64,000 nucleotides of DNA from Phylloscopus collybita (Eukaryota > Chordata > Aves > Passeriformes > Phylloscopidae): positions 1,890,501 through 1,954,500 of the forward strand of contig JAJNNQ010000023.1 of the NCBI GenBank assembly GCA_027886175.1, in the 5' to 3' direction. Position 1 is the first letter of the stretch; the number at the start of each line of letters is the position of its first letter. The position numbers and the translations under genes are program-made. This document shows, one piece after another, positions 15,452 to 42,019 of the stretch. The notes under the pieces are model-generated. The model searched no databases and was not told where the DNA came from. It saw nothing but the letters and a program-made list of their open reading frames with translations.

Positions 15452-16662
15452 GCAGTTGTGGAGAAGAAATGTTCTGGTCCTGGAACTCAAAACCTGGTTG
15501 TGATTTCAGGGATCTCACACCTGCTAACATAATAATAATCAAAGTCATGTTAATCCCAGAATTTGGGAATGGTTGACCTGAATTCCTTGTTCCTTTGGAG
15601 TTTTTTGGGGGTTTTTATGAAATAGCTGAGATTATCAGAATAGCCTAAAGGAATTTGGATGTCCATTCTCTTTTAGGTCAAAAATACTCTTTAGGGCCAG
15701 CAGGCTCTATCCATTATGGAAACAGCAGGTACCAGTGTTGGACAAAAATATTTTCTTCTCCCTAGATGATTTCCTTGTTTTCTGCAACACAAGACAGTGT
15801 GAGAATGCCACTGGGCAGTTCTGCAGACACTGCAGCAGCAGGGATTCACAGGCAGGCCAGATCACCAGGCATACACTAAACCAGAGTTTTCTACCAAAAG
15901 AAAGTTGCTTATTTGGTCCTTTTTGTGTAAGTTTTCCTAAATACTTCTAAATTTCTAGGAAAGTTGTCTTTTGCCAGTACTAATGACTTGTTTTTAAAGA
16001 TGCTTAACCAAAATTTTATAACTTCCCATAAATTTTGGCTGACTAGACCCCTTAAATAGTTTATTGATCATGCAGCCTCTGTCTGGGTTACTAGTAAATC
16101 TTGGATCATTGTTGGAAATTATAGGATGGCTTTTGTTCCCTAAGGATAGATGAAGGAATCACTTACTGAACTGAAGTTGAATGAAGAAAAGATGTAAGGG
16201 GGCAGATCTTCAGCTTGGGTAAACTGGCAGGGTTCAGTGGAAGCTACTTGATGTCAGCTGTGGATCTTGTCCTTCAGTGTTGAAGGCATTTCCTATATGT
16301 AATTTTTCTGTCTTACTGTAAAACAATTTCATATGGTTAAACTGTATTTTCCTATATTGTTCTGCAAGTTTATATATACACACCATAGTGCTCATCTCAT
16401 CTCCTGTAAAATAAACTGTACAGAGACACACTGAGCATGGAATTGTCTTTACCCAGTTGCTTTTTCTTCACCCACAGCCCCACACCTTGCAAGGTGCAGT
16501 TTGTGATCCGAGACCTCCTCTGGGGTGCCACGTGCACGTGGACTTTGTTGATGTTAGCTTAATGCAGCTTGAATTTGCAGCCACAACACTGGGGTGCAGT
16601 CTTGTGCTTGGCCTTTTCAGATCTTCACGTGATATTCAGACACATATGGTTCCTACAGTTTT
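10692..16662. other. Intergenic DNA between GAS7 and GLP2R, no gene seen
   Basis: No exon with splice signals and recognisable protein was found on either strand. There are scattered T-rich runs, one (ATA)n plus poly-T patch, and possible late GAS7 UTR. Mammals carry the single-large-exon-1 gene RCVRN in this interval; no EF-hand coding sequence is present here. Confidence 0.5.
15371..15446. repeat. (ATA)n microsatellite followed by poly-T tract
   Basis: A short run of AATAATAATG/ATA units at about 15371-15401 is followed by about 30 consecutive T at 15416-15446. This is simple sequence with no coding content. Confidence 0.9.
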
Positions 16663-17365
16663 CCTTTTCTTTTCTCTTCTCTTCTCTTCTCTTCTCTTCT
16701 CTTCTCTTCTCTTCTCTTCTCTTCTCTTCTCTTCTCTTCTCTTCTCTTCTCTTCTCTTTTTTTTCTTTTCTTTTCTCTTCTTTCTCTTCTCTTCTCTTCT
16801 CTTCTCTTCTCTTCTCTTCTCTTCTCTTCTCTTTTTTTTCTTTTCTTTTCTCTTCTTTCTTTTCTTTTCTTTTCTCTTTTCTTCTCTTTTTTTTTCTTTT
16901 CTTTTCTCTTATTTCTTTTCTTTTCTTTTCTCTTCTCTTTTTTTTTCTTTTCTTTTCTCTTATTTCTTTTCTTTTCTTTTCTCTTCTCTTTTTTTTTCTT
17001 TTCTTTTCTCTTCTCTTTTTTTTTCTTTTCTTTTCTCTTCTTTTCTTTTCTTTTCTTTTCTCTCTCTTCTCTTCTCTTCTCTTCTCTTCTCTTCTCTTCT
17101 CTTCTCTTCTCTTCTCTTCTCTTCTCTTCTCTTTTTTCTTTTCTTTTCTTTTTTCTTTTCTTTCCCCCTTTCCTTTCCTTTCCTTTCCTTTCCTTTCCTT
17201 TCCTTTCCTTTCCTTTCCTTTCCTTTCCTTTCCTTTCCTTTCCTTTCCTTTCCTTTCCTTTCCTTTCCTTTCCTTTCCTTTCCTTTCCTTCCCTTCCCTT
17301 CCCTTCCCTTCCCTTCCCTTCCCTTCCCTTCCCTTCCCTTCCCTTCCCTTCCCTTCCCTTTTTTC
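16663..17365. repeat. About 700-bp polypyrimidine satellite made of successive pentamers
   Basis: The + strand is almost pure T/C. Blocks follow in order: (TTCTC)n, mixed (TTTTC)n, (TTCTC)n, (TTTTC)n, (TTCTC)n again at about 17061-17130, (TTTCC)n at about 17166-17290, then (TTCCC)n at about 17290-17360. Long open frames in it are artefacts of the repeat. It lies intergenically downstream of GAS7. Confidence 0.97.
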
Positions 17366-17700
17366 CTGGAAATCAGTTCAAGAAACATGTGGTTAAGTGG
17401 TTCTTGAGCAAGCAAGCTGACCAGGAGCAGCCTGAGAGCAGCTGCCATGGAATGGGTGTGTTGTCATGTTTTTTAAGTGATCTGGAGCTCTTCCCCACCC
17501 AGCCTGTCCTTTACTTTCAAGCTTCACTGTAAAGCTCAGCTGGAAGCACTGCTATAAAAGCTTGTTAATGAATTTTCTCCTTTGGAGGTTTGAGTTAACC
17601 TCATGCATGCCAACAGGTTTTCTGACAAAGTCAAAATCAGGCCTGCCAAAGATCTTGCCTGAGCCAACACCTGCCTGGGGAAGGGGACTCAGAGCACCTG

Positions 17701-22148: not shown

Positions 22149-25100
22149 CTAAATTTCACTTTCCTCAAAGACCTCCTCGGTGGTCTCCCCGGTGGTGGTG
22201 ACCTCTCCCTCGCTGCTGTCGGACATGCTCATCTGTGGGGGGCCTGCCTTGGCCTCTGTCCTCTGCCTGGCCAGCACCTGCTGCAGCTGCACCTCCCAGG
22301 GCTTGCTCACCTCCAGGCACAGGCGGTGCTTGCTGCTGAGCTGCTGCTTCTTCCTTTTCTGCGAGCATTTCCTCAGGTATTTGATGTTCTCCCCGAGAAA
22401 GCAGAGCTTGCAGCCAAAGGGATCCGCCAGCAGGAAACGGGACCACTGCTTCTGCAGCTCTGCTTTCACCTGAGGGGAGGAGAAAAGAGTCACTGGTATT
22501 GATGCCTGAAGTTTTATCTTTGATGTTTTTCAGGTTCTGTGCTGCCCAGGGGTGCAGCTCTCAGCCTCACATTCAGGGTCACTCGGCTCTGCACAGAGCA
22601 GGGACACAAAACAAATCCTGTTCCTGCTGCACCCCAAGCACAGCTGGGACAAGTGTTCAGCCCCAAAGCACAAACAAGGGTGGCTGGAGGGAGGAACAAG
22701 AAGGATGGGACTGCAGAACCTGCAGCTGGGATTGGACAATTCAACCCCAATGTGCAAATGGACCCAAAGTGATCCAAGTGTCAGACCTGGTGACCCTTTG
22801 TCCATTTTGGGACCATTTTGGGTCCCCCTTGGGTGCAGCCCTGGCCAGGCTCTTGTCCTGCCCAAGGTGAATCCTTAAAGGCCTTTCAATAAATATCTGC
22901 TTTATTCTCTGAGCTCTGTCCAGTCTCTGCTCCAGCTCAAGGCACCAGTAATGGCAGGTGCCCACCCTGTAGTTCACTGACACAAATACAAAATGAGAGG
23001 AACTGCCAAGTGCCCGAGCTTCCTGCCCCTTTGGGGTTCACCTTGCACCTGCTGCTTGCAGGACAGCAACAGATTTGTTTCCTAAATCAATCTGGAGAGT
23101 CCAACCTCTTCACCCTGACTCAGGAAAGTTTTTCCTCTGCAAATGTCAGGGGTGTGAGAGCTCAAGTGACTCCCCTGCTGCAGGGAGGAGGAGGAAAGCC
23201 CAGGGGCTGTGGAAATGAGGACCACGCAGCTTTACCCAGGTGTTGTGCTGGTGTAGCTGGTTTGTTTTGTTAAAACATTTATCTGGCAGCTTGATGGCAG
23301 ATAATCCCCAGCTCTGAAGAGACCCCAGGAGCCAGCAGTGCAGAGCAGAGCAGAGCAGGCTGCAGCCCCGTGTGGAGGAGCTGGGGCTTCCCCTGCCTCT
23401 AAGAGCAGCACTTTGGCCTGAGAGTTCAGCTGGACCAGGTGGAAGAAAGCCAAAACAGCCACTCCCAACAGCTGGTGAGAGCTGCTGGCAATTCTGTGCC
23501 CTTTGCCAGTGTCACACAAGCTCTTCTCTAGTGCAGCCAAGTGCCAGCTCTCCTGATGCCTTTGGATTTGAGTTTTTGTATTTTTCATGTATTTGTAACG
23601 CTGCAATTCTTTAATGCATAACTCCAAACTGCAGTGCTAGCTACTGCCTTCACATTTTGGTCAAACAAAACAATTCCTCTCTAGGCCTGAAACTCAAGGA
23701 CTGTCTCAGGCCCTGAGGGATGTGGATTAACTGAGAACTTCTCACTGTGCCTTACCTCTCCATTAGCAAAGCAATAGAGAACTGCCACCAGAAAACCCTG
23801 TAAGAGCAAGGGAGTGAGAGGAAAAAGTCAGTGTGCTGGAAATACCTGAAGCTGTCATTCAAAGGTGACATTCTAGCCATAAATATAAACAATGCTCCTT
23901 AATGTTCAAAGAGGAAACTAGTTGCCTGCATTTATTTATTAATGAAGTACCCAGTCACTTTTTTTTTTTTTTTTTGGTGCCGTTCCTTGACAAGTGCAGG
24001 GCACATTTTGTGCACATGCTGAAGAACAGATTAGAAAACCCAGTTCTATCTTCATTTTGCTACCACATCATGGGTTTTTTTTCCAAACTATTGCTGTTCC
24101 AATGTGATAAATTGCTCATCAAATAACTGAGTTCTCTTTCCCAGTGTTTTTTTCCTGAGGGTAACGATTTCCATGCACAATTTCCATGCCAAGATGTTTA
24201 GATTGCTCCATTTCCTAAAGCAAAGCAGCCTCATACCTACAGCAGAACTCCTATTTAGAATTTAATTTCGTGCTCCTTGAGAATGTTTGAGTTAAACCTT
24301 CAGCTGAGATCCCAGGGATAATTGTTTTTCTTTAACAAAACAGTTTAACTGCCTTTTAAAACTACTGAGAAGATTTACAGACTAAACAAATGTAATTGTG
24401 TACAGTTTATGTGCTTTTTGGCTAATCCCTTCATAAATAATGCTGCAGCTAAAAAAGAGAATCTGCAATAAACATTGGCTAAGATCTCTGGGTATTTTTT
24501 TTTTAATGGAGCTTTGCTTCTAAAGCATGACATGCTGCCAAAGCACATGCATGTTTCTCTAAAAGGAATGAAGTTTGTGTTCTTTAGCAAAGATGAGTAA
24601 GCTGGTTTATATATCAGATTTCTTTCTCCAAGCCAGTAAATAAAATCTTCACTTAAAATGATTCTGCACTTTTAAAATAACATCTAGGCACTGCAGCCTC
24701 TCCAAGTAAGGATATGTCCAAGCAAGGAACTTATATTCCAACATTAGGGTCCCTTCCAACCCAAATAATTCTGTGATTTTGTGAACACCATGTCAGCAGG
24801 CTCCTTGGGCTTGTGGCTCTCCAGGAATTCTCTGCTGTCACTCAGGGAATTGTAATGCTGCAATTCTTTGGTGTATAACCCTTCACTGCAGTGCTAGCTA
24901 CTGCCTTCACATTTTGGTCAAACAAATCAATTCCTCTCTAGGCCTGAAACTCAAGGACTGTCTCAGGCCCTGAGAGATGTGGATTAACTGAGAACTTCTC
25001 TCCCAGCACTGTGCCTTACCTCTCCATTAGCAAAGCAATAGAGAACTGCCACCAGAAAACCCTGTAAGAGCAAGGGAGTGAGAGGAAAGAGAGATTTTCC

Positions 25101-28100
25101 CCTGCCAGCTGTGGTGGAAATTTCAAAAGTGCAGCCTCAACATCAGTGCCAAAGCACTGGTGCACACATACACCAGAGCACAGGTGCATTTGTGCAAAGG
25201 TTAAAACCCAGGGTCATCAAAAACTGTGGGCAAAGTGCAGCACTGCTCAGATCCCCTCAGGCTGCAGGGGAGGGCAGCAGTGGCAGAGCAGTGAGTTACT
25301 GAGGAGCAGCCACTTGGAGCCAGAGAGATTACCCTAAAAAACAACAACAAAAAAATGTTTTTGCTGCAAATAAAGATGTGGAAATTGCTGTCCTGGTGCC
25401 CCAGGGAAGATCAAGGCAGGAAGATGTGGGTAAAGGATAGCTTTGCTGAGCAGCTTCATTAGTACAGCCTCAAAACTCCATCACTTAGCAGGGCTGCAGA
25501 ACTCAGAGCAATGCTTTGTGCCACTGTGCTCTCCTCTGGCTTGGCAAGGAGGAGAGCAGATACAGGGAGGCACAGCCTGTGCTGTGGCCATCTGAGAATC
25601 ACCACTGAGCTCCAGGAACAACCCTGGAATCTGCACTGCTGAGGACTGGGATCTGCACTGCTGAGGACTGGCTGTTTTCTGGGGGGGTGGCTCCTTTACT
25701 GAGGGCAGAGCTGCCACACTCACACCCCCTCACCTCAGGTTTTTGCCTGCTCACACCAGCCTGAGGCAGGGGGACTGAAGAGGAGCCTGAAGTGCCACAA
25801 GATCTGTAAAACCCTCCTGACTCTGTGGGTGAGAAACTTCTTTTCCACCTGCAGGTGCTGGTTCATTTTTCTGTTCCATCCACGTGAGGGCTCTGACAAA
25901 TTTCCTACTAAAACTAACTAAAACTTGGTGCCCTTTTGTGAGAGTACACCTGGGGGTCCACAGCATCACTCTGCAGATGAGGTGGACAAAACATCCTTCA
26001 GGAAAACGGAGCCCAAACCTTGGAAGAGGCAGCCATCCTCATGGTTATGATTTTGGCTGGGAATGTTTTCAATGAACCATTTTAATCCCATTTTCAGAGC
26101 TCTGTGATGAACTGCTGCCCATTACCAGAGTCACCTTTTTTTTTTTTTTTTTTTTTCTTCTGAAAATGTCAGACTCATTTGTTTGGTGTTTGGGACGTAT
26201 TTGAGCATGCAGTTTGTGTTTTGTCTTGTTACTGCCACAGCATATTTAGAGACATTGTAGGTTGGGCTATAACATTAAAACAGAATTTACTCTAACTGTG
26301 CTGAGCAGCAAATGGATCTACAAACCCTAAAAAACAATACTTGCAAAACAGCACTTACATGAAATGAGCTCATTGTCAGCTGAATGAAAAGTCTTATATG
26401 TCTTGAAAGTCCTTCCACCTGTTCATCAGTGATGAAGGTAAATACAAATTCATGGATCCCCAGCAATGGAATCAGCACAAGGGTGGATCTTGCCAATCTT
26501 AAAAAAAGAAAAAATGTTTGATTGTTGTATTTTCTGAACGTCCTTGGTGCCAAAAATCAAAAACTCAGAGACAAAGAAATAATTCCAAAAATGTGCCCTC
26601 AGTATTCTATGGGATGGTAGTAGCAGATTTGTGATTTTCAGAATAATGTGTGCAGAAATCTGTGGGAAGTCTTGTTAAAAGGCATCTGTAAATGAAATGT
26701 TTTCCATGGCACATCCTGACCAGAATAAAGTAATGCCTGGTTCTCTATCAGGCTACACAAGTAGTGCTAGAGGGTTTTTCTTCTTTTTCTTCCCAAATTT
26801 CAATGACAAAGGGAAAAAAAAAAAGTGTCACAGCAGCAGAGGCCACAGGTGTGAGAGGAGATACCTGAGAGCAGAGCTCTCACTGCACTGAAAAGCCTTT
26901 TGTGAAAATGCCCCCAAAACTCAGGAAACAGAAGCTGACCTTCCTTTGCCTCTCAGGTAGGGAAATGTCTGTGGAGCCTGTTTTCCTATTCTGAATATCT
27001 GCTCAGAATATTCTGAGTGTCTGTTCAGAATATAACTATTCCCTATATTCTGATTATCTGTTACACCTGGTGGTGGGAGGTACATCTGACAAGTTTTGAA
27101 TGTGACAAATTTTTTTTAAAAAGGGGACTTCTGTGTCATTTGTCACATACCTGTATTTGTAGTCATGGAAGGTCATTTGCTGAGCTTTTAGCTTGGAAAT
27201 CAGCATTCTGAGAATTTTTAAGAAGATGCCAAAGTTAACCTCGAAGGAAAACACACGTGGTTTATTTACAGCAAATGTTGTGGCACTGAGCTGTTAACAA
27301 CTAAATAAATGCATAATTGACATGAAACACTTGCAAAACCTGCCACCAAATAACTGGAAAGCAGCTGGAATACAGGCAGGTTGTTGTCACATACTAATCA
27401 TGCAAAGTTGAGTGACTTAGCTTTGCCTTAATCAGCCTGACAGATCATTTGATACATGATCTTCCAGTACAAAATTCCATTTCAATTTTTTAATACAGAA
27501 CCCTGCTTCCTCGTTGTTTTTTTTTTAACAAAACTTTATCCCTTCTCTCACTTTATGTCTCCCTTGATATTTCTGTGGCAGGAAACTGTATCTTATTTGT
27601 TCCAAAATTTTGAAGTACAAAAAATGGCACTAATGACAAAGTCCAAGGAGGGAAAAAAAATAAAAAATAAAAAATAAATCCAGGTTATATAATTCTTACT
27701 GCAATGGAAAACAACATTGGTCCTCGGATGATCCACCAGATCCCCATGTGTTCATTTGTTCCCCAGCACCTGGAGAATAATTTAAAGTGCAATTATTTTC
27801 ATAGGAAAAAAAAAAAAAAGAATGCTCACATAACTTACATATATATTTCAAAAGGAACTTGATGAAGTTCAGGTTTTTCAGGTGGCCCCCAAAAGGAGAT
27901 GGAATAAAACTAGGAAGAGTTTCACCAACAGCTCTGAAGACCTTTCCACGTGAAAGTTGATGCAGGTTTCCCTAGACCATAAACTTCAGAACTAAAAAGC
28001 AAACTCAGTCTTTGAATCCACAAAACACCAAACCCTCATTGTGGAGTTAATCCTACTTAAATTATCTCTCTGAAACTGGAGACTGGAAATGAGTAAACTG

Positions 28101-31100
28101 GGAATTGTGACCACGCTTCTTGATCTGCTAAAAAAGATGCATACCCTTTCCTTGAAGCTGTCTCTTTTTCTTCTGCTTTAACCTTCTGATTTGTCCTATT
28201 TCTTTTTTTTTGCTAATTAGCCTGAGGTTCTCTAGGATCCTGGCTTGTCATTTACAATTTATAAGACATCTGACTCTGTAAGTCTGCAATTATGGTTTGG
28301 ACATTGCTCCAAATGTAAATAAAATTCTCTAGAAACCACAAAAAACAAGGAGGGAACAAAAGATTCCATACATAAACCACAAAATTTATGTGATGCCACC
28401 ACTGAAGACCAGAAACTGGTGTTTGCTAGTGCCTGTTACTGTCACTGATGCCCTCACCCTCTCAGTGACTAGCAGGTTTTGTCATGAATCTCCATTACAA
28501 TTCACTTTTTTTTTTTTTTTTTTTTTTTTTTTCCTTAAAAAGTGGCAGTGAATACAAATTAAAATGTCTCCAAGGAAAGCTCTGGTCTCCTCTTCTTACT
28601 GACAGGATGCTCTCTGTGAAGATGTTGGTGCACACAGTTTGCTTCATGTGAAGGGATCAACTCCTTGCTAAGGAGTAGAATGAATAAATGCATAAGTAAA
28701 TCCTAAAAAATAAAAATTCCTAGAAGTTTATTTAATGTAAAAGTACTAAAGGGAGCCTTGAAAATGTAACAATTATCAGTAGGTGCTGTGTCATCTGATA
28801 ATTTGCTGGTCTGTTCTTGTGTCCAGTACTGCCAAGGGCTTTCAGCCAAGCAAAGAGAAAATCAGGATTCCAAGGAACATTTTATTCAATAACCTACCCA
28901 GTGTTCTCCAGTTTGGATCTGCTTATTCCCCAGGGGCCCACAAACAGGATTGGAACAACTGAAAAGGAAAGAAGAGTTTATTCCAGCCAAGCTTGTAGAA
29001 GTGTGTGGTGCAAAGGTTTGTGCTCTCCAGCTTTCTGTTTGGAACAGGACAAAAATCATCTCCATCCTGGCTTTCCCCATTTGGGGTTCAAATGCAAAAT
29101 GACTTCTCGTGGTGTAGCTGAACCTTGCATTTTCAGACTGATGGATGCATTCACACATAAACACACTGCTGATCTGCTGAAATCGAAATTCCTGACCCTG
29201 AGAATTCAAATTGGCACAGGAGGCCTCACAAACTCCCTTAGGCACAGCTGTTGAACTTTAAAGGAGTTTTCAGTGGAGGTGTGGGATGCTGCCTGGTTAA
29301 TTAAAACAGATGACAAAGGATTGTTGTCCTGAACCCCTTCAAGAGAATCCCAACCCCCTTATTGTTGCCCCCAACCCTCCATGGAGAACATGGACTGAAA
29401 AAAAAAAAAAAAAACAACCCTAAAGTGAAGGATTTCTGCTCTATTCCAATGGACTGCAAGTGTGAAAGCACCAGTCTCAAACCATGAGCTATGACAGGCA
29501 GTGCTCCACTGAATTCTCAGCCCAATAACACACAGGGGATTTTCTGGTGGATGTGGCAGAAATTAAAGGAGGTTTGGGTCCCTGGGACCACAACAGGGAC
29601 TGTACAGGATTTTTGGAACACTAAGGTCATGGAGAAAGCTGGAGTGTGGCAACACAGAGAAAGCTCCAGAGACAAAATACTCTCCAAGAGAACAGATTTC
29701 TGAGTAGGTGAAAGGGGGAAAGAGATAAAAGGGGTCTCATTTTTTTTTTTTTTTTCCTTTTTTGCAAAATATCCTCCACTGACTCAGCAAAGCACCAGAT
29801 AATCAGAAACAGTTCTGGACTTACCCCATCCTATCACAATGTATGTCTGGAGCAGTCTTCTTTCAGAGAGCACCACAGTTATCAATAATGTGTGCAGATA
29901 AATTCCTTCCACTAATAGCCAGAAGTAATTTGCCCCAACAAAATAATGCATGAAAAACTGGGCAGTCCTGCAAATGATTACAATCTGTAGGGATGAGAGA
30001 CCAGGAGTCATTGTGAATATAAATGTCATGATCTGCATTGTAAGAGTTGTTACTGGTGAGCTGTTAAAATAATAATAATCATCATTAACACTTTGCAGAT
30101 AATTTTCCTTGTTGACATGGGCAAGATCCATTCCTACAACACACAAAAATAATTTATTCACAGTGGTCACAAATGAGATGATGTAAGCAAGTGCCAAATA
30201 AACATGGGGATTTCTTTCTAAAAGCTACAAGGTGTGAGTTGCTTTGCTTAAGTGGCTGTTTCTAAAATCAGTTTGTAACAATCAATTAATATGTTCTTCC
30301 TAGTCATTTAAAATAAACCACTTGCAGTCAGGATTTCATCTTGAAATCCCAGCATCACAATCAATTAATATGTTCTTTCTAGTCATTTAAAATAAATCAC
30401 TTGCAGTCAGGATTTCATCTTGAAATCCCAACATCTCAACCAATTCATATGTTCTTTCTAGTCATTTAAAATAAACCACTTGCAGTCAGGATTTCATCTT
30501 GATTACCTCAACTTTTCTCACCAAAACTTCAGCATCCAAAGCTCAGCTTACAAACAGCTCAACACTTGATGCTGCAGGGCAAACTTCCAAAACTCTACCT
30601 GCCATGACCACTAGAAGCACCCATTTCCTATTATCCCTGAGCTAACACATTACCTCTGGGCTGAGGTACAGTATCCAGCCACTTTCATCATTTGGCCTTT
30701 TTGAGTAAATGTTGTAGTAGACAGAGTCTTTGATAAGAACTGCTGCGGCACGCAGGATGAAGGATGCAAATAAATTCATGTGGATGTAGTTTCTTGTGCA
30801 GTGAAGTTTTCTGTGGGAGAAAGAAAAAAAAAATCATGTTTGAAATCCTCTGGAATATGTCTAATCCGCAGAAATAAAATTTTTAAAACCCAACATAGAC
30901 CCAGCAAAACAGATTCAGGTTGTTGCCAGCAATGGATTCTGCTTAGAAATCGCATTTGTGTTGCTCCTCAGAAAAAAATGCAAGTTATTTACATGAAATC
31001 TACACAATGGGTTGGGTTGGAAAGGATTTTAAGGCCCATCTCATTCTATCCCCCCTGCCATGGGCAAGGACACCTTCCACTGGATCAGGTTGCTCCAAGG

Positions 31101-34100
31101 CCCATCCAACCTGTCCTTAAAATCTCCCAGGAATGGGACAGTTTCTCTGCATGACCTGTGCCAGGGCCCCAGAGTAAAGAATTTCTGCCTAATATCTGAT
31201 CTTTATCTACCATCTTCAGCTTGAAGCCATTCCCCCTTGTCCTAGCACTCCATGCCCTTGTACAAAGCTCATCCCCAGCTTTTTTTTTGCAGCCCCTTCA
31301 GGAACTGGAAGGCTGGAAGGTACTGGAACACTGGAAACTAAAGAATAACTTCAAATTCATTTAAAAGAAAAGAATGAGTGCGGGGCTCTGTACGTTTAAA
31401 ATGTGTGTAAATTTACTAACCTGAGTAAAGAAAGTATCAGCAGAGCTAATACCAGCGAGATGAGAGAAAAGTAATATCCTATAGTGTACAACAGCTGTAA
31501 CGTGGTGAGTAGTTTATGCTCTTCTTCCTGGGAACAAAGAAGAAAAATGTGTTACGTGGGAAGAGCAGAAACACAGCCCAGAAAACTTTGGGGATCGCCT
31601 CCTTTTGAATTTCCAGGAGCCAGGGCAGGATTCTGATCCCTGCACTGCCTTGTATGACAAAGACACTTGCACCCAGAGCTTCTTTTTTAACACAGAGGTA
31701 CCCCCAGACCATTCACAGCCCAAAGCACAGCTGAGCCTTGCCCCAAGGGGCTCCTGGTGGGTGAGCAGCTGCAGAGAGGACTGACTGAACCTGCACCCAG
31801 CAGTGTGTGTGTGTGGCCTGCAGGCACTCACTGACCAGCTGTGCCTGCACAGCCTGCAGAGCCAGCCCTGTCCAGAGCTATTGGAACAGACTGACTTCTG
31901 TTTGGAGCTCAAAGGAAAAAAAAATAATTGAATTAGAGCTGTCTTGAATGTCTTTGTAGGACAAATAAGACCTCAGAGGTGGAAGGGAAGTACTCACACT
32001 TTCATAGATTATCACAGAACATCCTGAGTTGAAAGGGACCCACCAAGGATTGTTCGAGTCCAGTTGTTGAGATCCATTCCTGGCCCTGCACAAATTTCCT
32101 TTCAATCTGCCTAATTTAAAACATTTCTTTTTCCTAAGTTTTTTTTTTTCCTATTTTACCTGCTTAAAAAGAGTCTACCTCTCAACTACTCAACCTCCCA
32201 GCCCAAGGAAAGCATCTCTGAAGAGGGAATGAGATCCAGGCTATGTGGCTTTCATAACCCATATTTGGCCTACAGAGCTTTTCTTGGAACCTGTGTCCTT
32301 TCCTCAGTGAGTTTGCTGTTTTTCTGCTTCTGCTACTCAACACCAGGGACTTCAGCACTGTCTTCCTGCCAGCAGTTTTCTCTAATAATTCCCTGCCAGT
32401 GAGCCACAAAGGGGGAGAAAGTGCCCAGGAAAAGCAGTGTGGGTGCAGGAGATTCCCAGCTGTTAGTCACTCTGCTCCATGGAAACATTCCAGCAGGTAA
32501 AAACCTGGTAAAAAAACCCCCCAAATTGTCATCTTGGCTTTTTCTATTTGCAGCACCACAGCACATGAAAAAGCCAAACTGATTCCTCTGATGTTATTTC
32601 TGGCTCTGGGGTTATTTGCAGCATCTGGGGGGATTTCAATGAAAGGAAATAAGCAGGTACGAGCCCATGTTGAGTGTTGGTAGGAAAGCTGCTCAAAGCT
32701 TTCAAAGAAATTCTCTGCTGTCACACAAGATGAAGTAACATGCCTTGCAGAAACAAATATTGTATTCAGAATGGTCAACAAACCTTGGAAAACACTCAGA
32801 ACTTATGAATATTTACTACATTTTCATAAATAAACTGAAAGAATGGAAATTCTTTTACTTGCTATGTAAAGAGCTTAGTAAAACCGTAGTAATACACAGA
32901 GATCCTAGACTACAAATGTTCCATAACTAATTAGTAAAGTGGTGTTACTTGAATTATACAAAAATATTAGGAATATTTTCTTAAAAAAGGATTTGTCTCC
33001 TGATAATTTTTTTCTTTATGAAAAGGTTAGAAACACTTTTTTTTTTCTTGATAAAAATGCTAGAACAACATGGTCAGAATTAAAAAGTAAAAAAAAAACA
33101 GTGGCAACAGTGCTCACCTAAGAGACCTAATCCTGACATCTGCTAAGCTGAACTCCATGGCAAAAGAAGTTTGGCTGCCAAACTGGCCTGATGTAAAATG
33201 AGAAATACAGGAAGGATGGCATTAGGTCAGGGTGACTCCTCCAGCCTCTGAGCAGCTCAGTTTGAAATAACCAACTAACAGCTCGTTCAGTGCTGAAGGG
33301 CTCAGGAGGGAAGTTGTCTAACTTTGACAGACTGATGTGATTTGGGGAGCTGCTGGCATGCTTACTTGCTTGACAAGCTGCAGTGTTTTTCTATTTTATT
33401 AGGAGAAAATCAACCCACGTGAACACTGGGCTCTGAACAGAAAATAACTTGTGGCACCTAAAGCAGGAATCCCCCTCCTTTAATATTTTCTCCTCTGCTT
33501 CTTAGAAATAAAATAACAGCTTTCCATCTGGTAGTTGAAATGAAATCTGAAGATCCTTTGCAAGTATTAAGTGGAAATGTTTTGTCAGTTACTCAAGGAA
33601 GGATTAGGAAGATTAAAGTTTTCAACCGTAATATAAAACACACTTACATTTTTTTGGAAATGATTTTTCTCAGAACATTCTGAACTATCTCGCCAAATGT
33701 CTGTGGAATTTTCCTTTGTTTGCCAAATCCCTTCATCCAAGCAGACTCTGTATACATGTCCTACACTTCCTGAAAGTAAACAGAGTTTTGGTTTGAAAGG
33801 TCAAAATAGAGGTTTCATTTTTCATACATTTTGAAAGATTTCTGCCTTACACCTCCACAATAGGCTCTACACCACCCATATACTCAAAAAAAAAAAAAAA
33901 TAGAACCCACTTTTCTTTTGTCTTTGTCAATATATTTTTTTTTTATATTTACACAGGACAAAGTAGGAATGTGATCCAGCAGAAACAAATTGCCAGAGTG
34001 TACCTGGTTTTTACAAGAAAACCCACACAGTACATCCAAAAAGAGAAGCCTGCATCTCACTTCATTAATTTTTCCTCATTAAGCTGGAGAATGGGTAATT

Positions 34101-37100
34101 AATTGGCCAGGTTGTGCAGTCAAAACTGCACAAGGATTTGATTAGGGAAGGATCTTTCTCTGTAACTCCTGATGTTGCAGGCTGATGTTTCATTTCTGTG
34201 CTCTGGGGTCCCTTCAGCAGGTGGGGTGAACTGATGAAGTTCTCTTGGTTTTCACTGCATTGTCCCAATTTATACTAATTAGGAATTTTTCCACAGCATC
34301 AGAGGAATGGTGTGGGGACCCTGGCTGATGTTTGTTTGATGTTGTCCTTAACAGCTGCCACCCATTTCTTTCTAATCAGACCTGAGCTTTGTCAATCATT
34401 TTTGAGTGTTTAAGGGTCCTAGCAACAACCAGAATATCTTGTTTTGCTCAGCTCAGAGCTGAGAGAATTGCTTTGGGAGCAGAGTTTGTTGTGATGGAGC
34501 AGGAGCTCTGTATGAATACTAGACACTGGAAAAAAAAAAACTTAAACCATCCATGAAATGTGATCAGAAATCCTGCTTTTGTAGAAATTCAGACAGGAAA
34601 AAAAAAAGTCTCCATTGCATGGAGGTAAAATGCTTTTGTTTATTGTGAAGAGCTGGGCTTGTTCTCCATGGCTGGCAGAAGCAGTTTGGGAGATTAGATA
34701 GAAATTTGGTCTCTATTTCTTATTAGCATAAAAAAGGATAAATTATATTAAAGAGCAAACCATGTGTGGTTTTTGGGATGGAGAAAGCTGAGATAAGCAG
34801 CTGGGAGCAGTCTCCCATAAATTAAAGGGTTTGGGCAGAACTGGTCCCTCCAAGTGGAATTAGAAGAGCAGCTCAGAAAGAATCCTGTTTAGCAGGACTC
34901 AGGAATGCTGCTCTGTGCTGACAGCAGTGTCTTTCCATTCCTCTATGGGAATCTTGTTTGGTCTTTGACACTTTGGCTCCTGAAGGTGTTTTTTCCCCCC
35001 TTGCTGAGAGAGCTGCATTTCCTGCAGGAGAAAGCTGCTTGGTTCCCCACAGCACTGGCTGGCTGTGCCCCACTGGAGGGCTGGCTGCTGGGAATGCCCC
35101 TGAGCTTGGCTCTTCCAGTTTTTTTGGAATTGTCTCTGGGATCAGTGGGGACCCCAGAAGTTGAAGCTCAGGAGCTGAACCCTGAATCTCTTAGTACAAG
35201 CAAAGCCCCGGCAGTGTGGTCACAGGACCTTGCAAATGTTGCCTTGCAGCAGACAGCACCGAGCTGTGGCAAGCACAGATGGAGAAAAACAGAGATTAAA
35301 CCTTGACAATGATCCTGTGCCTCAGTTCAGGAGTGCTAGAAAGGAGTGAGAGCCTTCATCTACTTCAGAGGACACTGGGGCAAGACAGACAAGCTCCCCC
35401 TGTCCTTCAGCTGAATTCCTGGCACAAACTCCAAGTTCCCACTTTCACCTTACCATTTTCCAGCCATGGCAAGTATGAAGGACAAGGAACAGAGACATTT
35501 CCTGGGCGTGAGTAAGGCCAGCAAACAAACTGATCAAATGTCCCATTGCAATGTACTCCTGAGGAGAGAAGCAAATAAAAGATTCACAAAAAGTTATCCA
35601 GACAACAGACAGTCATGGAAACCATTTTCTACTGTTCCAGGTAACCTGCAAGCTACTCCAGAGCAACAAGATATTGCAGATAAATGAAGTTGTATCTCTG
35701 GTAATCTCTCAGAGTAACTCAGTTTTAATCTTCACAGTTACCACATCACTCACAGGACTGAAGGTTAAGATAAAACATTTGATAATGCAGAGTTGAAATG
35801 GTGCAGGCAGGTGACAGCAACATAAAATGCATGAGTGGCTGCCCTAGTGTCTTGGTGAGTTTCTGTCTTTCTTTTAGGATAACACCAAAGTTCTTCTCTC
35901 CTAACTTCAATGCTTTTGCTCGTCCTAAACCAGAAGAACACTTTATCTCAAGGTTTGCACACAGAGGCACAAGACTGTGTGAGCCTTCTGTCAGGCTCTG
36001 AGAACCCTCTACAAACCCATTTCCCATTCACTTTTCATCTTTCCTGGGTGAACAGCAGCCACCTCTCTCCTAGCCACTCCTTGGACTCCTCCAAGTACTC
36101 AAACCAAAAACCCTGCCATCCTTTCCAGGAGACAGACACCAAGCTGAGCAGAGTTCATACGTTTGGGAGTGAAATAATGAGGGATTATGAAGTCCCCTTT
36201 CTGCAAAGAGCAGAAAACTTTGAGCACCCAGTCAAAGGAGGGAGGCATGAATTCAGGAGGAGACACTGTAGGTGTGCTGCTCTTCACCTGAGCATCCAAA
36301 AGCCACAGAGAGAGGAGAATAAACAAGGGACTTCGGGCTAATATTTGTGGCAGGTGAATTGTTCTACATTTAGTACTTAGGAACAGACACAAACCTCTGC
36401 AAAGCAAGCAAGACAATATTTGCATATTGCTGTCCCTCAATACATTTCTTTGTTCCTTAGTTCCTTACCACTGCCTACAGGTGATTCCTGCAGCATTTTC
36501 AAGCATTCCTGTTTATATTTGTTCCATCCAGTAGTGGTTTTTTCCAGCAGAGAACCTTTGGCCTGGGAGTGAAAATACTGTACAGGAGAAAAATCAGTTA
36601 GAACCTTTTTGTCCTCAAAGACAAATTTCTTTCCATTGTAAGAAATTCTAGCCTGAGCATGGAAATGAGGAGAGGAAAATGGAGGAATGGTAAAAAGTAG
36701 TAAAAAAAAAAAAAGGTCTAAAGGGCGTTTTGGTTTTAGAATATTTTTAAAGACAATTAAGCACACCTGGCTGAGTAATACAGCAAAAAAAAAGGAAATA
36801 TTGAATAAAACAGTAATGCAATAAGTATTAATAAGCAATGCTATTTAGCTACTAACAGCTTTCCTCTGGTGCATTCTGGACTCCTGCCCAGCATTTCCCA
36901 AACCACTTATTTTACCAGCAGCTCCAACTGTGCCACAGATCTCTTTCTATTCCCCTTTTTCATTTTCTTTTTTTTTTTTTTTTTAAGCAACACCTTTGTA
37001 AATTTTAGTTTTACTTGCCCATTTGCACCTGTTTGCCCTTTTTTTTTTGCCTCAATAGGGCACTGTTTTGCTTTCTTCTTGTGTCCATAGGTGAGAAGAG

Positions 37101-40100
37101 TCTTTGTCCTCTGGATTTCCCACATAATAAAAAGACAGACTCATCCTTATCATACAACACTCTGACTGCAGAGGTCTTTAAGCTGATAATTGCTGTTTAG
37201 GGAAAAAAAAAATAGCTGAAACCAGAAGAACTGAATGCAAAAACGCTTGGAGATCTGGGTGAAGAAATGCTTTATGAGGAGCAAAGCAGTTCAGAAAGGA
37301 CGGTGGGAGATGCTGCTCAGAGCTCAGTGTTAGCATGATGACTTGGTCATTATTTATCCATAGGAAAGAACACCATCCTAGGCACTGCCTGTGCAATAAA
37401 GCCCCTGGTCTCCTGAAACCTGGGCTTTGAGAGGCCAGAGCAGCCCAAGATTACTGCTACTAGAAGTCAACAAAAATGAAAAATTCATGACTGGTTGAAA
37501 ACATTGCCCATTCTAATGAGAAAACTTTGGACAGCAAACAAAATACAAGTTTTCTAAGCAATCTTTTTACTAAAAGATGCCTTTCAGTTCTCCAGGAAAA
37601 GTCAGTTTTTGTCTGGACCACAAAACTGCCTCCAACACGTTTGGTTGTCCTGATTTTGTCTGAACATGGTGATGTGCCAAGGGCTGAGATACATAACCAG
37701 AACAAGGTATGGCTGTGAACTTCACCTTTGCTCCGTTCAACCTATGGTTTGCTTTTATTTTAATGAAGAAAATCACATTTATTTACCTTCAAAACAGGAA
37801 CAGCATTCTGGTGAGCTAGCTCCTATGCAGGCTCACTGTTTCATGCATATTTTTACTGTGTAAAACGTTGCCTGCTCAATACTCTGCTTTTAGCCTCCCA
37901 GCTAAATTCCAGACACCCCACTTTAATCTTGAGGTCTAGAAATCTTATGGTCTAATCTTATGGTCTAGAAAGACCATAATCATTCTCCCGTGGATGGGTT
38001 TGCAAGATAAGGGGAGAATATTTACAGCAGCCATGAGAAAGGAATGCGTGTTTCCAAAATAAATTAAAAAAAAAAAAAAAAAAAGGCATCTTGACATTTC
38101 CCTCATGCAGGCCTCAAATCTCTGGGAGCCAGGGGAGATTCTTCAGGCACTCGGGGGGTCAGTGAACCTCACTTGAAGAGGCAGAGACGTGGAGATGACG
38201 CACTTGCAGACAGGACTGCTCGGTGGAAGGAAGAACACTCCAGTTTCTGATAAACAAATGAGTTTTAAACGGCTCAGGAAACAGCAAAGAAACCTCCTCA
38301 GCAGTGGCTACCTGGGCAGCTCCTTTGGGGTCCCGCTCCTGGGTTTGAGGTTGCTGCACAGCCACGGAGAAGTTCACCTGGAACTTCACCCAGAGGTTCA
38401 CCTAGGCCTGAGGATCAGGCCAGGCCTAAAGGCCAGCTCCACATCGCTTCCTGAGGGAATTGTCCATCTCCTCAGATCTGCAGGCACGGTCACTGTTGGG
38501 AAAACCCAGCTCTACAGAGAGGGGGCAGCTGAGGGGCGTTTTTAAAGATTTTATTCCATTATCGATCTCTGAGAAGGGTGAGACACAGGAGATGTAAAAC
38601 TCAACGCCATTCGATCAGAAGCCAAACTATTTCTTTGTTACAATATCTTATAAATGCTCTTCAGCCCATCAGCTTTTGCCACACAACGCTGCTGATACTT
38701 CTAACACCAATCACTGATTATTTTACCCCACGTGGTCTCGCTACAATGCATCTTTCACAGTTCTCATTCTCCAAAATATCTGCTCTGTTTGCCAGGCCAT
38801 GGTTTGAAACTTGTTTCCAGCTTAATTTCTCTCTCAACAGTGTCTTCTCTATTCCATGGCCTTCTTCAGCCAGCACAGCTCACCTCAGGAGTTTGCACAC
38901 AGATGCACAGATGCAGGAGACCTCATGGCCATTTGTCCATTTTGTGTCCATTTTGGGCCCACCTTGGGTGCAGCCCTGGCCAGGCTCTTGTCCTCCCCAA
39001 GGTGAATCCTCAAAGGCTTTTTAATAAATATCTACTTTATTCTTTGAGCTCTGTCCAGTCTCTGTTCCAGCCCAGCCTTCCCAAGGCGTCACCTGGGCAG
39101 ATCTCAAACATCCTCTGGGTGAAAATCCTTTTCCTGTTATCCAACCTAAACCTCCCCTGACCCAGGCTCAGGCCATTCCCTTGGGACCTGGGCCACAAGA
39201 ATGATGATTTTTCATGACACCCCTGAACTTCCACTAGAAGGCAAACCAAGTAGGCTGGGAATAAGGCACCAGCCTTTAGAGGGAGGGGGAAATGAAGGGA
39301 GTGGGACACCTTGATGTTCTGTGTCTGTTTGAGTGAAAAGGGGTCAACAAAAAGTCAGAGGCAGGCTTGTCCCTGTGTCCTGACACCAGTGTCCCCATGG
39401 TTCTTCAGAGAGGGGCCCAGGGTCTCTCAGGAAGAGGGTGGTCTCCAGTCTGGGTCAGCATGAGGAGCACAGAAATCACTGCTGCAGCTGTGGAGGCCTT
39501 TTCTGGTTTTGTCGTGTCGGAGGAGGCCAAGCCACAGAACAACAGAATTACACAATGGTTTGGGTTTTTTGGAAGGGACCTTAAAGACAAGAAAGATCTG
39601 GTTCCAAGCCCCTGCCATGGGCAAGGAGACCTTCCACTCTCCCAGGATGCTCAAGGCCCTGTCCAGCCTGGCCTGGGACACTGCCAGGGATGGGGCGTGG
39701 GCCCTGTGGAGAAGACCCAACAAATACCCCTCTGCAGCTGGCACAGGGTGTGATTACAAATCCCAGGGAAGTTCTGTAATTATCTAAGCTTTAGGGTTAG
39801 ACACAGTGCAAGTTCTGTGGCAGAAATACAAACTTTCAGGGAAATTTCCCACGATCTCAGCCAGTGGAAACACTTCTTGATCTGTTCTGCAGCTTTTGAT
39901 CTGTTGTGCATTTCAGTTGCCATTTGGCCACTGCTTTTAAACAGGACTTCTGACTCGGGGAAATTAAACTCCGGGGTCCAAGAGAGAAGACCAGAAAGTC
40001 CATGATCTTTTGCCCAACACTGGACATAATTTCAGGTCGTCTGAAGCTTTTTTTTGGTGACAAAAGGAGCTGCCTCAGCCCGCCAGCCTGGCCCCTGCTT

Positions 40101-41968
40101 GCACTGAAGTTCACCCATGAGGAAATTCAATCAGAATTCCCCTGGAAGTGTCTGGCCAATTATTTGGGTTGCACCAAGAAGGCACCTTAGAAATTTGTTG
40201 GATGTGGGAGAAAATGTCGCCTGAAGCTTTCATTTAAGAAATGGATTATGTTTAGTTGCAGATTGGTTTAAAAAGTTTTTTGTAACTCACCACAGCACTG
40301 TCAGAATTTCACCCTTTTAATTTTTTATACTAAGCTAGCAGTGCAATGAAATGTTGCTGTTTATTCAGACTATGCTCTTATGGACAGAAAAAAAAAAAAA
40401 AAAGCCCCTTCAATTTAGGCATAAACTAAAAATAAAAGCTGAAAAATATTTATTCATTCTTTCAGCCGTGATCCAGGTTTAGTCTGGCGGATATTTTTCC
40501 TATCTATCGAGGTTTTTGCTAGAAAATACAGATACAGTGATTTATGGCTGTTATTCCTTTGAGTGTTTTTTTTTTTTTTCTTATGAAATAAAATATAAAG
40601 AAATACAGCACATATTTCTTTGAACAAGTTGCAAGAGCCACTATGACAAATTAATTCACTGCAATTAGTTGAGCAAAGTTTTGATCTCACAGAAGTATTT
40701 GGGGGATTTTCTGTTAGCACTGATGGAACTGATGCTTTGGCCGAGGTGTCTCACAAATCTGAGAGTTGTTTCAGTTCTATAAACAGAAGCTCTGAGCAGA
40801 GAAGCTCTAGATTTGAATGATACAAAAATATTAGGAATATTTTCTTTAAAAAGGATTTGTCTTCTGGTAATTTTTTTCTTTATAAAAATGTGAGAAACAC
40901 TTTTTTTTTTTCTTCATAAAAATGCTAGATATCAGCTCTACAGCACATACAAACCCAATTTTTTAGAAACTCAAGAAAATGGAGATGAAGTGGATAGAAA
41001 TACATTTTTACTTGCAGTTTATTGTCCTGACACCCATATGCTTCACAGAAATGTACCCTAAATATATCTGTGAATTTTATTCACTTAAATGGAAATGTAC
41101 CAAGTATCAGTAATTGTTTTAAAAATTTGTTCAGATCAAGATTGATACTAATCAATAAATCAGAATTACTAAAAACCTATATGAACATTTCCTTGAAGGG
41201 AATTATCTTGAGATATTTTTTCATTAAATACCGAAAACCCTTCCAAATTACAAGGTAAGAAAGAAGTAAGTAAGAAGTTTGGAATTTTGTAAATATTTAG
41301 GTTAAAAAAAATATATATAAATAAAATGGTTTAGTGGATCTTTCCAAGATACAGATGTAGAAATCTCATACAGATTTATTTGCTTTCTGTATGAATGTGA
41401 GGTGCAGAATGAAACCAGCCAGATTTCACAAATTGGAGATTCAATGCTCACAAGTCAGAGGCTAAAAAGCAGTGCCAGGAACAAATCAAAGCTGGGTTTA
41501 GAACAGCAAAAAAAAAAAAAAAAAAAAAAGTAGAAAATAAATGTGATTCATAATAGTATTTTTATCTGGTAGGAAAACAGAAAAACAAATGTAATTCAAT
41601 GCTGATCAATACTGGTACGAAAAGTGATTATGTAAATTGTTTTAAGCATAATTTACTCACTGTATGAATGGGGATTAACAGAATAAAACTGTAATAAATG
41701 ACCTCGTCAGAGAGAGTTCTAATATAAAACTCTACATCTTTGCAGCCATTACTAATTAGTAATAAAATTAAATTGTTCTGTTGGTAGGATTTTTGGTACA
41801 AACGTGCTGTTGAATGTTAAAATTAAAATTAAAATTAACATGCTAGGTGCTATGAATTCACTTTTATACTGTCCATTACTAATGGTTGAATTGGCTTACC
41901 TGTTTCACAAGAAACAATATCATGATAGAGCTGGCAGATGTTGGAGGTATCCTGGACCAGAGTCCCAT
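22149..41968 (-). CDS. GLP2R: GLP2R, glucagon-like peptide 2 receptor (class B GPCR)
   Basis: Thirteen coding exons on the minus strand keep frame throughout: 41900-41968, 36469-36562, 35454-35558, 33648-33769, 31421-31527, 30654-30810, 29825-29984, 28898-28958, 27700-27769, 27151-27239, 26359-26497, 42-nt exon 23756-23797 (identical alternative copy 25020-25061), and 22149-22469 with TAG at 22149-22151. This gives 511 codons. Residues 1-31 form a short signal region (MGLWSR...ILFLVKQ). The hormone-binding ectodomain has [24 protein letters not shown] and [14 protein letters not shown]1 is near 138-165; the TM2 region starts [22 protein letters not shown]3 has [23 protein letters not shown]5-6 has [16 protein letters not shown] and [15 protein letters not shown]7 has [14 protein letters not shown]. 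The tail ends EESEI, as in the human protein. The receptor couples GLP-2 to Gs in gut. The start is the first ATG after an in-frame TGA. It diverges from GSG1L2 and converges with GAS7. Confidence 0.95.
22500..22947 (+). repeat. Solo LTR of the TGATGCC family, inside the last GLP2R intron
   Basis: It starts TGATGCCTGAAG and ends CTCAAGGCACCA, an imperfect inverted terminal pair (TGATGCCTT/AAGGCATCA in the copy at 61103). AATAAA at 22888-22893 is followed by CTTTATTCTCTGAGCTCTGT. Internal parts align by eye with the 61103 copy. It lies 30 bp upstream of the GLP2R terminal exon, in the opposite direction. Confidence 0.8.
23594..23826. repeat. Direct duplication, copy A (contains GLP2R 42-nt exon)
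   Basis: This segment matches 24851-25089 in direct orientation, with a few substitutions and a 6-bp TCCCAG insertion in the other copy. It covers an LTR-derived part, the 42-nt exon 23756-23797, its acceptor and donor, and about 30 bp beyond the acceptor side. Confidence 0.9.
23756..23797 (-). other. GLP2R: GLP2R TM7 exon, downstream copy
   Basis: Forty-two nucleotides encode [14 protein letters not shown] (14 codons, phase 0 at both ends), flanked by TTACAG acceptor and GTAAGG donor. It is identical base for base to 25020-25061. It sits closer to the terminal exon. Confidence 0.9.
24748..24790 (+). repeat. CR1 LINE 3' terminus, short
   Basis: The sense CR1 end is readable as GGTCCCTTCCAACCCAAATA followed by ATTCTGTGATTTTGTG. 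It lies between the two copies of the duplicated GLP2R exon, about 60 bp before copy B. Confidence 0.75.
24851..25089. repeat. Direct duplication, copy B (contains GLP2R 42-nt exon)
   Basis: Partner of 23594-23826. Exon and splice sites are identical; the flank on the donor side differs by a handful of bases plus TCCCAG. The similarity starts abruptly at TGTAATGCTGCAATTC and stops in GAGGAAAGAG. Confidence 0.9.
25020..25061 (-). other. GLP2R: GLP2R TM7 exon, upstream copy
   Basis: An intact 42-nt exon copy with the same acceptor (TTACAG), donor (GTAAGG) and phase as 23756-23797. It lies nearer the preceding exon 26359-26497. Either copy alone restores a normal receptor; both together would add 14 residues within TM7. 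Confidence 0.85.
30279..30502. repeat. Three tandem copies of a 79-bp unit
   Basis: Units start at 30279, 30358 and 30437 and contain TATGTTCTTYCTAGTCATTT, AAAATAAACCACTTGCAGTC and AGGATTTCATCTTGA. Divergence between copies is low. It lies in the GLP2R intron between exons 30654-30810 and 29825-29984. Confidence 0.95.
31006..31330 (-). repeat. CR1 LINE 3' region, antisense
   Basis: It contains GGGTTGGGTTGGAAAGGATT, CCCCCTGCCATGGGCAAGGA, AAAGAATTTCTGCCTAATAT, GCCATTCCCCCTTGTCCTAG and CCCCTTCAGGAACTGGAAGG, the ordered antisense hallmarks of avian CR1. It lies in a GLP2R intron. Confidence 0.9.
32008..32100 (-). repeat. CR1 LINE 3' end fragment, antisense
   Basis: Reads ATCACAGAACATCCTGAGTT, GAAAGGGACCCACCAAGGAT and CGAGTCCAGTTG, a diverged CR1 terminus in a GLP2R intron. 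Confidence 0.7.
32946..33064. repeat. AT-rich dispersed repeat, copy 1
   Basis: About 118 bp closely match 40811-40930 in the same orientation: ATACAAAAATATTAGGAATA, AAAGGATTTGTC, TAATTTTTTTCTTTAT, GAAACACTTTTTTTT and AAAAATGCTAGA. Both copies lie in GLP2R introns. I do not recognise the family. Confidence 0.85.
37958..37979. repeat. Short perfect inverted repeat
   Basis: Nine-base arms TTATGGTCT / AGACCATAA are separated by AGAA, inside a small cluster of TCTTATGGTCTA repeats (37933-37980). No function is implied. It lies in GLP2R intron 1. Confidence 0.8.
38918..39091 (+). repeat. TGATGCC-family LTR, 3' part
   Basis: It shares CCTTGGGTGCAGCCCTGGCC, AGGCTCTTGTCCT, AATAAATATCTACTTTATTC and TGAGCTCTGTCCAGTCTCTG with 22740-22947, and ends AAGGCGTCA. 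The 5' half was not identified; 38540-38917 may be another LTR. Confidence 0.7.
39095..39200 (-). repeat. CR1 LINE fragment, antisense
   Basis: GAAAATCCTTTTCCTGTTAT, CCAACCTAAACCTCCCCTGA and GGCCATTCCCTTGGGACCTG correspond to the mid-3' antisense CR1 region. It abuts the LTR end at 39091. Confidence 0.65.
39537..39722 (-). repeat. CR1 LINE 3' end, antisense
   Basis: Contains ACACAATGGTTTGGGTTTTT, GGAAGGGACCTTAAAGA, CCCCTGCCATGGGCAAGGAG and CTGCCAGGGATGGGG. It lies in GLP2R intron 1. Confidence 0.85.
40811..40930. repeat. AT-rich dispersed repeat, copy 2
   Basis: Direct-orientation partner of 32946-33064, about 7.9 kb away, with roughly 10 substitutions or small indels judged by eye. Confidence 0.85.
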
Positions 41969-42019
41969 GCTGGAATACAGAGCAAAAGGTGTCACCAATG
42001 CCCACTCAGATAAATTTGT

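What the first reader, a model, noticed from the sequence alone, without database searches (positions are those of the whole stretch)
23594..25089. Perfect tandem duplication of the 42-nt TM7 exon of GLP2R
The sequence shows two identical copies of the exon that encodes [14 protein letters not shown], each with intact acceptor and donor, about 1.26 kb apart in direct orientation and embedded in a duplicated block of about 230 bp. Both are phase 0, so splicing can choose either copy without changing the protein, or include both and insert 14 residues into TM7/helix 8. The identity suggests a recent event or gene conversion. In class B GPCRs, variants at this exon position change trafficking and signalling, so mutually exclusive or double inclusion could matter.
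Basis: partly seen in the sequence, partly recalled or inferred. Interest (0 to 1): 0.75.

Follow-up and report, generated by a model that had tools for sequence, protein, structure and literature searches.

The report
Duplicated TM7 exon in songbird GLP2R
A gut-hormone receptor gene in a songbird-like bird carries two identical copies of one tiny exon, most likely an old copy kept identical by gene conversion whose newer copy lacks a good branch site, so it probably matters little to the protein unless RNA data show both copies being used.

Summary
The 42-nt exon encoding [14 protein letters not shown] occurs twice without mismatch on the minus strand (25020-25061, 23756-23797) inside an otherwise intact GLP2R gene. 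Both copies are phase 0 with the same acceptor and donor. Only the exon and its nearest flanks are identical: the whole block (243-250 nt) has 14 substitutions and one 7-nt indel, crowded at one end.

New here: the block includes a fragment of a dispersed LTR-like repeat. Copy A (downstream) keeps the repeat's outer end and has a strong branch-site match (CACTGAC, -31). Copy B (upstream) has a truncated repeat, and its homology stops 1 nt 3' of that branch adenosine. So A looks parental and B the daughter. Private and shared changes fit an old duplication later homogenised by gene conversion.

Three standard mutual-exclusion mechanisms do not fit: the intron between the copies is 1222 nt, both copies are GT-AG, and 42 is divisible by 3. 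No protein with both copies was found. Expected mRNA is mainly single-exon; double inclusion and skipping are untested. No RNA or other bird's genomic DNA could be examined.

The parts
23756..23797 (-). TM7 exon, copy A (downstream; inferred parental)
25020..25061 (-). TM7 exon, copy B (upstream; inferred daughter)
23585..23827 (-). duplicated block, copy A (homology reliable from about 23593)
   Evidence: alignment
24842..25091 (-). duplicated block, copy B (matches the repeat family only from 24850)
23827..23833 (-). putative branch site CACTGAC of copy A (branch A at 23828, -31); homology with B stops at 23827
23554..23723 (+). fragment of a dispersed LTR-like repeat keeping its outer TGATGCC end
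24850..24980 (+). the same repeat fragment in copy B, truncated inside the element
23628..23824 (-). inferred conversion tract in copy A (2 substitutions and one 7-nt indel in 197 sites); equivalent in B about 24885-25088
   Evidence: limits set after seeing the data
23828..24841 (-). spacer between the blocks, with a CR1-like 3' tail at about 24740-24787 (name recalled)
26359..26497 (-). GLP2R TM6 exon, ends phase 0 (SSFH)
22149..22469 (-). GLP2R last coding exon (VKAEL...EESEI, stop)
22149..36562 (-). GLP2R coding exons from the second to the last, 13 counting both TM7 copies; 13 AG acceptors and 12 GT donors
41900..42001 (-). GLP2R first coding exon (signal region)

Best explanation
This is an old intragenic exon duplication. 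A segment of about 240 nt, holding the 42-nt TM7 exon, 30 nt of the intron before it and about 170 nt of the intron after it (including an LTR-like fragment), was copied about 1.26 kb upstream within the same intron. Copy A is the original and copy B the daughter. The copied segment began just 3' of the branch adenosine, so B got the acceptor, pyrimidine tract, exon and donor but not the strong branch site. Later gene conversion re-homogenised about 200 nt around the exon, which is why the exons are identical while the block edge is not. In the cell, A is expected to supply the TM7 exon by default; B is a weaker exon, mostly skipped and sometimes included with A (+14 residues at TM7/helix 8) or instead of A (same protein). 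Shown by sequence: the duplication, the truncation of B, the branch-site asymmetry, the uneven divergence. Inferred: direction of copying, gene conversion, splicing outcome.
For: Exact exon pair and shared splice sites. Repeat fragment: A matches the family from 23554 including the outer TGATGCC end, B only from 24850. A and B share a 7-nt deletion absent from all 7 dispersed copies aligned and a 6-nt deletion that two of the 7 have only in part, so they derive from one insertion. Branch site: CACTGAC scores 6.5 of 7 on my simple score, the best of the 13 acceptors of the gene, reached by 1.3% of 20,000 random intron windows; B's best between -15 and -50 is 4.5, reached by 58%. Conversion: 8 of 35 sites differ at 23593-23627 against 2 of 116 at 23628-23743 (Fisher 1.3e-4; 8 of 10 within 29 nt in 86 of 100,000 permutations); private:shared changes against the repeat family 8:1 at the edge and 2:6 in the core (Fisher 0.015). 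Precedent: U2AF1 exon Ab, a duplicated exon repressed with the help of weak branch points (PMC5224494, abstract and passages). No double-inclusion protein: 76 listed, 312 candidates; 0 of 190 retrieved.
Against: No RNA evidence. B keeps a possible CTCTCAC branch site at -18 (also in A), so it may splice well. The edge/core boundary was chosen after seeing the data, so the p-values are optimistic, and counts are small; a longest-identical-run test on the intron part alone was not significant (11,717 of 100,000). The core functional stretch (79 sites, 0 substitutions) would also fit selection on both copies (P = 0.034 if only one copy were free to change). The branch-site score is home-made. No outgroup bird DNA shows which copy is ancestral.
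Confidence: 0.6

Rival explanations
1. Both copies are ordinarily included, so the receptor of this bird carries the TM7 exon peptide twice (28 residues), giving a longer TM7/helix 8 and altered or lost signalling.
For: Both copies have the same acceptor and donor, the intron between them is 1222 nt, and 42 nt keeps the frame, so nothing seen in the sequence forbids it.
Against: None of the 76 proteins listed (312 candidates) covers more than 68% of the 41-residue double-copy query, and 0 of 190 retrieved proteins has the motif twice (166 once, 24 not by that pattern). Six passerine models carry it once. B lacks the strong branch site. The database shows cluster representatives only, so an isoform could be hidden.
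Confidence: 0.15
2. The copies are regulated mutually exclusive exons kept by selection.
For: Tandem exon duplications often end up spliced this way (PMC6071210, PMC9013439; passages); 0 of 79 core sites differ.
Against: Identical peptides make the choice silent; no short intron, both GT-AG, no frame shift (criteria in PMC5740500, passages, which also says many similar neighbouring exons are not mutually exclusive); no significant competing pairing (6 tests of copy A segments, best 1 of 40 shuffles).
Confidence: 0.07
3. Copy B is a neutral, unused duplicate and its identity reflects recency and chance alone.
For: Core divergence is only 2 of 116 intron sites. If only one copy were free to change, 0 differences in the 79-site core has probability 0.034: low but not excluded.
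Against: The block edge differs at 8 of 35 sites, with four changes on each copy, which a simple recent event does not give.
Confidence: 0.13
4. Assembly artefact (false duplication).
For: Reads could not be seen.
Against: Flanks differ at 14 of 164 sites with an indel, and a spacer without homology to the outer introns separates the copies.
Confidence: 0.03

Closest known systems
TM7-exon (42-nt) skipping in class B receptors: PTH receptor exon 14 (PMC3179322, start of abstract and passages); calcitonin receptor and CRH-R1d as mentioned there
   Same: Same exon position and length, in frame; six of 190 retrieved GLP2R-related models skip it exactly: ostrich isoform X7 (P0026) and P0179-P0183 (aye-aye, two camels, two Mustela)
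   Different: There one exon is lost; here the exon is present twice. Double inclusion would add 14 residues rather than remove them
Tandem duplicated exons in vertebrates (PMC9741552, PMC9013439; passages)
   Same: Homologous in-frame exons next to each other in one gene
   Different: The events described there give homologous but different peptides; here the peptides are identical and use is unknown
U2AF1 exons 3/Ab (PMC5224494; abstract and passages)
   Same: Duplicated exon whose inclusion is limited by weak branch points
   Different: The two U2AF1 exons encode different isoforms, and transcripts with both are lowered by NMD; neither applies here

Membership tests
GLP2R orthologue | class B receptor with hormone-binding and 7TM domains, nearest to GLP2R | tested here: met
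   PF00002 and PF02793; best PDB match 7d68 GLP2R; 94% identity to zebra finch GLP2R
Tandem exon duplication | two homologous exons, same length and phase, splice sites intact, same gene | tested here: met
Mutually exclusive exons | one and only one copy in each mRNA | not testable with these tools
   no RNA data
Mutually exclusive exons | a built-in barrier (short intron, U2/U12 mismatch, frame shift) | tested here: not met
   1222-nt intron, identical GTAAGG donors and AG acceptors, 42 nt; U12 patterns were not scored separately; criteria from PMC5740500
Mutually exclusive exons | competing intronic pairing | tested here: inconclusive
   6 tests, shuffles at least as strong: 1, 34, 6, 3, 21 and 6 of 40; only copy A segments tested
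Gene conversion between repeats | tract of low divergence beside diverged sequence of the same age | tested here: met
   one edge only, limits post hoc; intron-only longest-run test not significant
Exon skipping of the class B TM7 exon | mRNA without the exon in this bird | not testable with these tools
   seen only as annotated models in other species

The most novel reading that the evidence does not exclude
The duplicated TM7 exon is shared by many passerines and kept identical by recurrent gene conversion, and regulated double inclusion or skipping tunes GLP2R trafficking and signalling in the gut through a 14-residue change at TM7/helix 8.
Probability: 0.07. Interest if true: 0.75.

Novelty: new member of a known kind. 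Interest (0 to 1): 0.38.

Why it matters
It is a natural test of what happens when a constitutive, in-frame exon is copied without its branch site: whether a weak branch site alone is enough to keep a duplicate silent, and whether gene conversion can hold an exon pair identical. If both copies are used, a receptor with a doubled TM7/helix 8 segment would be an unusual class B receptor isoform. The listings (one search shows 15 of 6,232) showed no paper on this duplication; subscription journals are mostly not in the library.

Tried and rejected
Simple tandem duplication of a 1.26-kb unit: no homology between the spacer and either outer intron beyond the block, apart from short low-complexity matches. 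Competing RNA structure as a basis for mutual exclusion: not significant. Known RNA families or tRNAs in the window: none at the thresholds used. A first dating from the mean of the block (14-24 My with recalled rates) was dropped, because divergence is not uniform. A naive local alignment (first part) returned self-overlap and was redone. In one search the clustering test (11 of 13 within 40 nt, 13 of 100,000) included three outermost sites (23588-23592) that are probably not homologous; these were dropped and the test redone. Also: longest run over the whole block 106 (397 of 100,000; includes the exon), over the intron alone 47 (11,717 of 100,000, not significant). A looser motif pattern flagged P0052 as having the motif twice; the second match is in another part of the protein and is chance.

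Full report
What is there. The 42-nt sequence occurs exactly twice on the minus strand, at 25020-25061 (copy B, upstream in the gene) and 23756-23797 (copy A, downstream); no other match with up to 3 mismatches exists in the window, and none of 100 shuffles gives two. The gene is GLP2R: the predicted 488-residue protein (first exon left out) has the secretin-family 7TM and hormone-receptor domains, its best solved relative is GLP2R (7d68, with a shorter query), and it is 94% identical to zebra finch GLP2R. The 13 exons listed have AG acceptors, and the 12 with a donor have GT. The neighbouring GSG1-like and short-chain-dehydrogenase exons fit the order around GLP2R as I recall it. The first coding exon is at 41900-42001.

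The block. Copies align over 23585-23827 and 24842-25091: 1 of 30 upstream sites, 0 of 42 exon sites and 13 of 171 downstream sites differ, with one 7-nt indel. The blocks are 1014 nt apart. The spacer has no homology to the outer introns beyond the block except short low-complexity matches. In the own-genome search its only matches elsewhere, among 40 scored of 62 candidates, are to a short tail at about 24740-24787, which I recognise from memory as CR1-like. So this is an interspersed, not a head-to-tail, duplication.

Parent and daughter. Searching the bird's own genome showed that part of the block (window 23594-23723 and 24850-24980) belongs to a dispersed repeat; of 489 candidates 40 were scored, and among those 40 only the window's own locus covers the exon. 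Seven of the dispersed copies were fetched and compared. Copy A matches the family from 23554, at the element's outer TGATGCC end; copy B matches only from 24850, inside the element. Six of the seven share about 320-470 nt with each other; the seventh, L004, is split. The name LTR-like rests on the TG end, length and dispersal and is inference. Both exon copies share a 7-nt deletion absent from all seven, and a 6-nt deletion that two of the seven have in part, so a single insertion was duplicated. This makes A the parent on that side.

Branch site. Upstream of A stands CACTGAC with its adenosine at -31. With a simple score against TACTAAC it gets 6.5 of 7, the highest of the 13 acceptors in the gene (next is 6, at the second exon); 1.3% of 20,000 random 60-nt intron windows reach it. 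Homology between A and B ends at position -30, one nucleotide 3' of that adenosine. B has nothing above 4.5 between -15 and -50 (58% of random windows reach that), and that motif, CTCTCAC at -18, is also in A; its next better match is at -82, beyond upstream AGs at -41, -48 and -75. The daughter exon therefore has good splice sites but a background-level branch site. Several other exons of this gene also score low (3.5-4.5), so a low score does not prove that B is unused. U2AF1 exon Ab is a studied case where weak branch points help repress a duplicated exon (PMC5224494, abstract and passages).

Why the exons are identical. Divergence is uneven: 8 of 35 sites at 23593-23627, 2 of 116 at 23628-23743. 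At the edge, four changes are private to A and four to B relative to the dispersed copies, and one is shared; in the core 2 are private and 6 shared (Fisher 0.015; five core columns unclear and left out). This is the pattern of gene conversion over about 200 nt around the exon. With the avian neutral rates quoted in PMC2946954 (2-3.9e-9 per site per year; passages), my arithmetic from the distances puts the edge at roughly 35-68 My and the core at 2-4 My; with 8 and 2 substitutions these are only orders of magnitude. Limits: the cut was chosen after seeing the data, only one edge is available, and the longest-run test on the intron alone was not significant (11,717 of 100,000). Selection on both copies could add to the identity: 0 of 79 core sites differ, P = 0.001 if both copies evolved as the rest and 0.034 if only one were free.

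Consequences for splicing. A duplicate of 42 nt causes no frame shift; the 1222-nt intron is far above the about 50-nt steric limit; both copies are GT-AG. The three mechanisms considered in PMC5740500 (passages) are thus absent, and a search for competing pairing gave nothing significant (6 tests). Choosing A or B gives the same protein, so mutual exclusion would have no product to act on. What could matter is double inclusion (+14 residues) or skipping (-14). Skipping of this exon is described in the PTH receptor, where it gives a poorly functional dominant-negative form (PMC3179322, abstract and passages), and is annotated in six of 190 retrieved models (P0026, P0179-P0183). Double inclusion was not found: 76 proteins listed of 312 candidates, none covering more than 68% of the double-copy query; of 190 retrieved proteins 166 have the motif once, 24 not by that pattern, none twice. 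These are cluster representatives at 90% identity, so a hidden isoform is possible.

Other birds. The motif occurs once in Taeniopygia, Motacilla, Emberiza, Chloropsis, Pitangus and Melospiza models. The Catharus and Junco models (P0002, P0005) lack the exon and have 6 or 9 other residues there; P0025 ends before it and P0023 departs into other sequence after SSFH. Whether those genomes hold one or two copies cannot be read from proteins, and no bird DNA outside this genome was available.

Verdict. A real exon duplication, better explained as an old intragenic copy homogenised by gene conversion and handicapped by the loss of its branch site than as a free or mutually exclusive splicing switch. 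Interesting as a natural splicing experiment; ordinary in kind unless RNA shows double inclusion.

Noticed in passing
41900-42001 (minus): First GLP2R coding exon: where zebra finch has MGMVTLFALHSS the window reads ALVTPFALYSS, so the initiator methionine is not at the same place; an in-frame ATG follows at SSMG. Seen.
   Followed up: partly
26341-26358 (minus): The Catharus GLP2R model (P0002) reads 6 codons past the TM6 donor (VSTVLQ) into the last exon; the window has the same 6-codon extension (VSAVLQ) followed by another GT, a possible alternative donor.
   Followed up: no
43775-44500: Array of direct repeats with a unit of about 111-135 nt just before the GSG1-like exon.
   Followed up: partly
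16625-17407: Long pyrimidine-rich simple repeat (TTTTC type) giving spurious ORFs in several frames.
   Followed up: no
22783-22939, 38918-39074, 61416-61516: Three copies of one repeat inside the window, 79-90% identical over 104-157 nt; the first lies in the GLP2R intron after copy A.
   Followed up: partly
25000-25007: Copy B has a 7-nt insertion relative to A shortly after its donor, adding a short G run on the gene strand, which might influence donor use.
   Followed up: no
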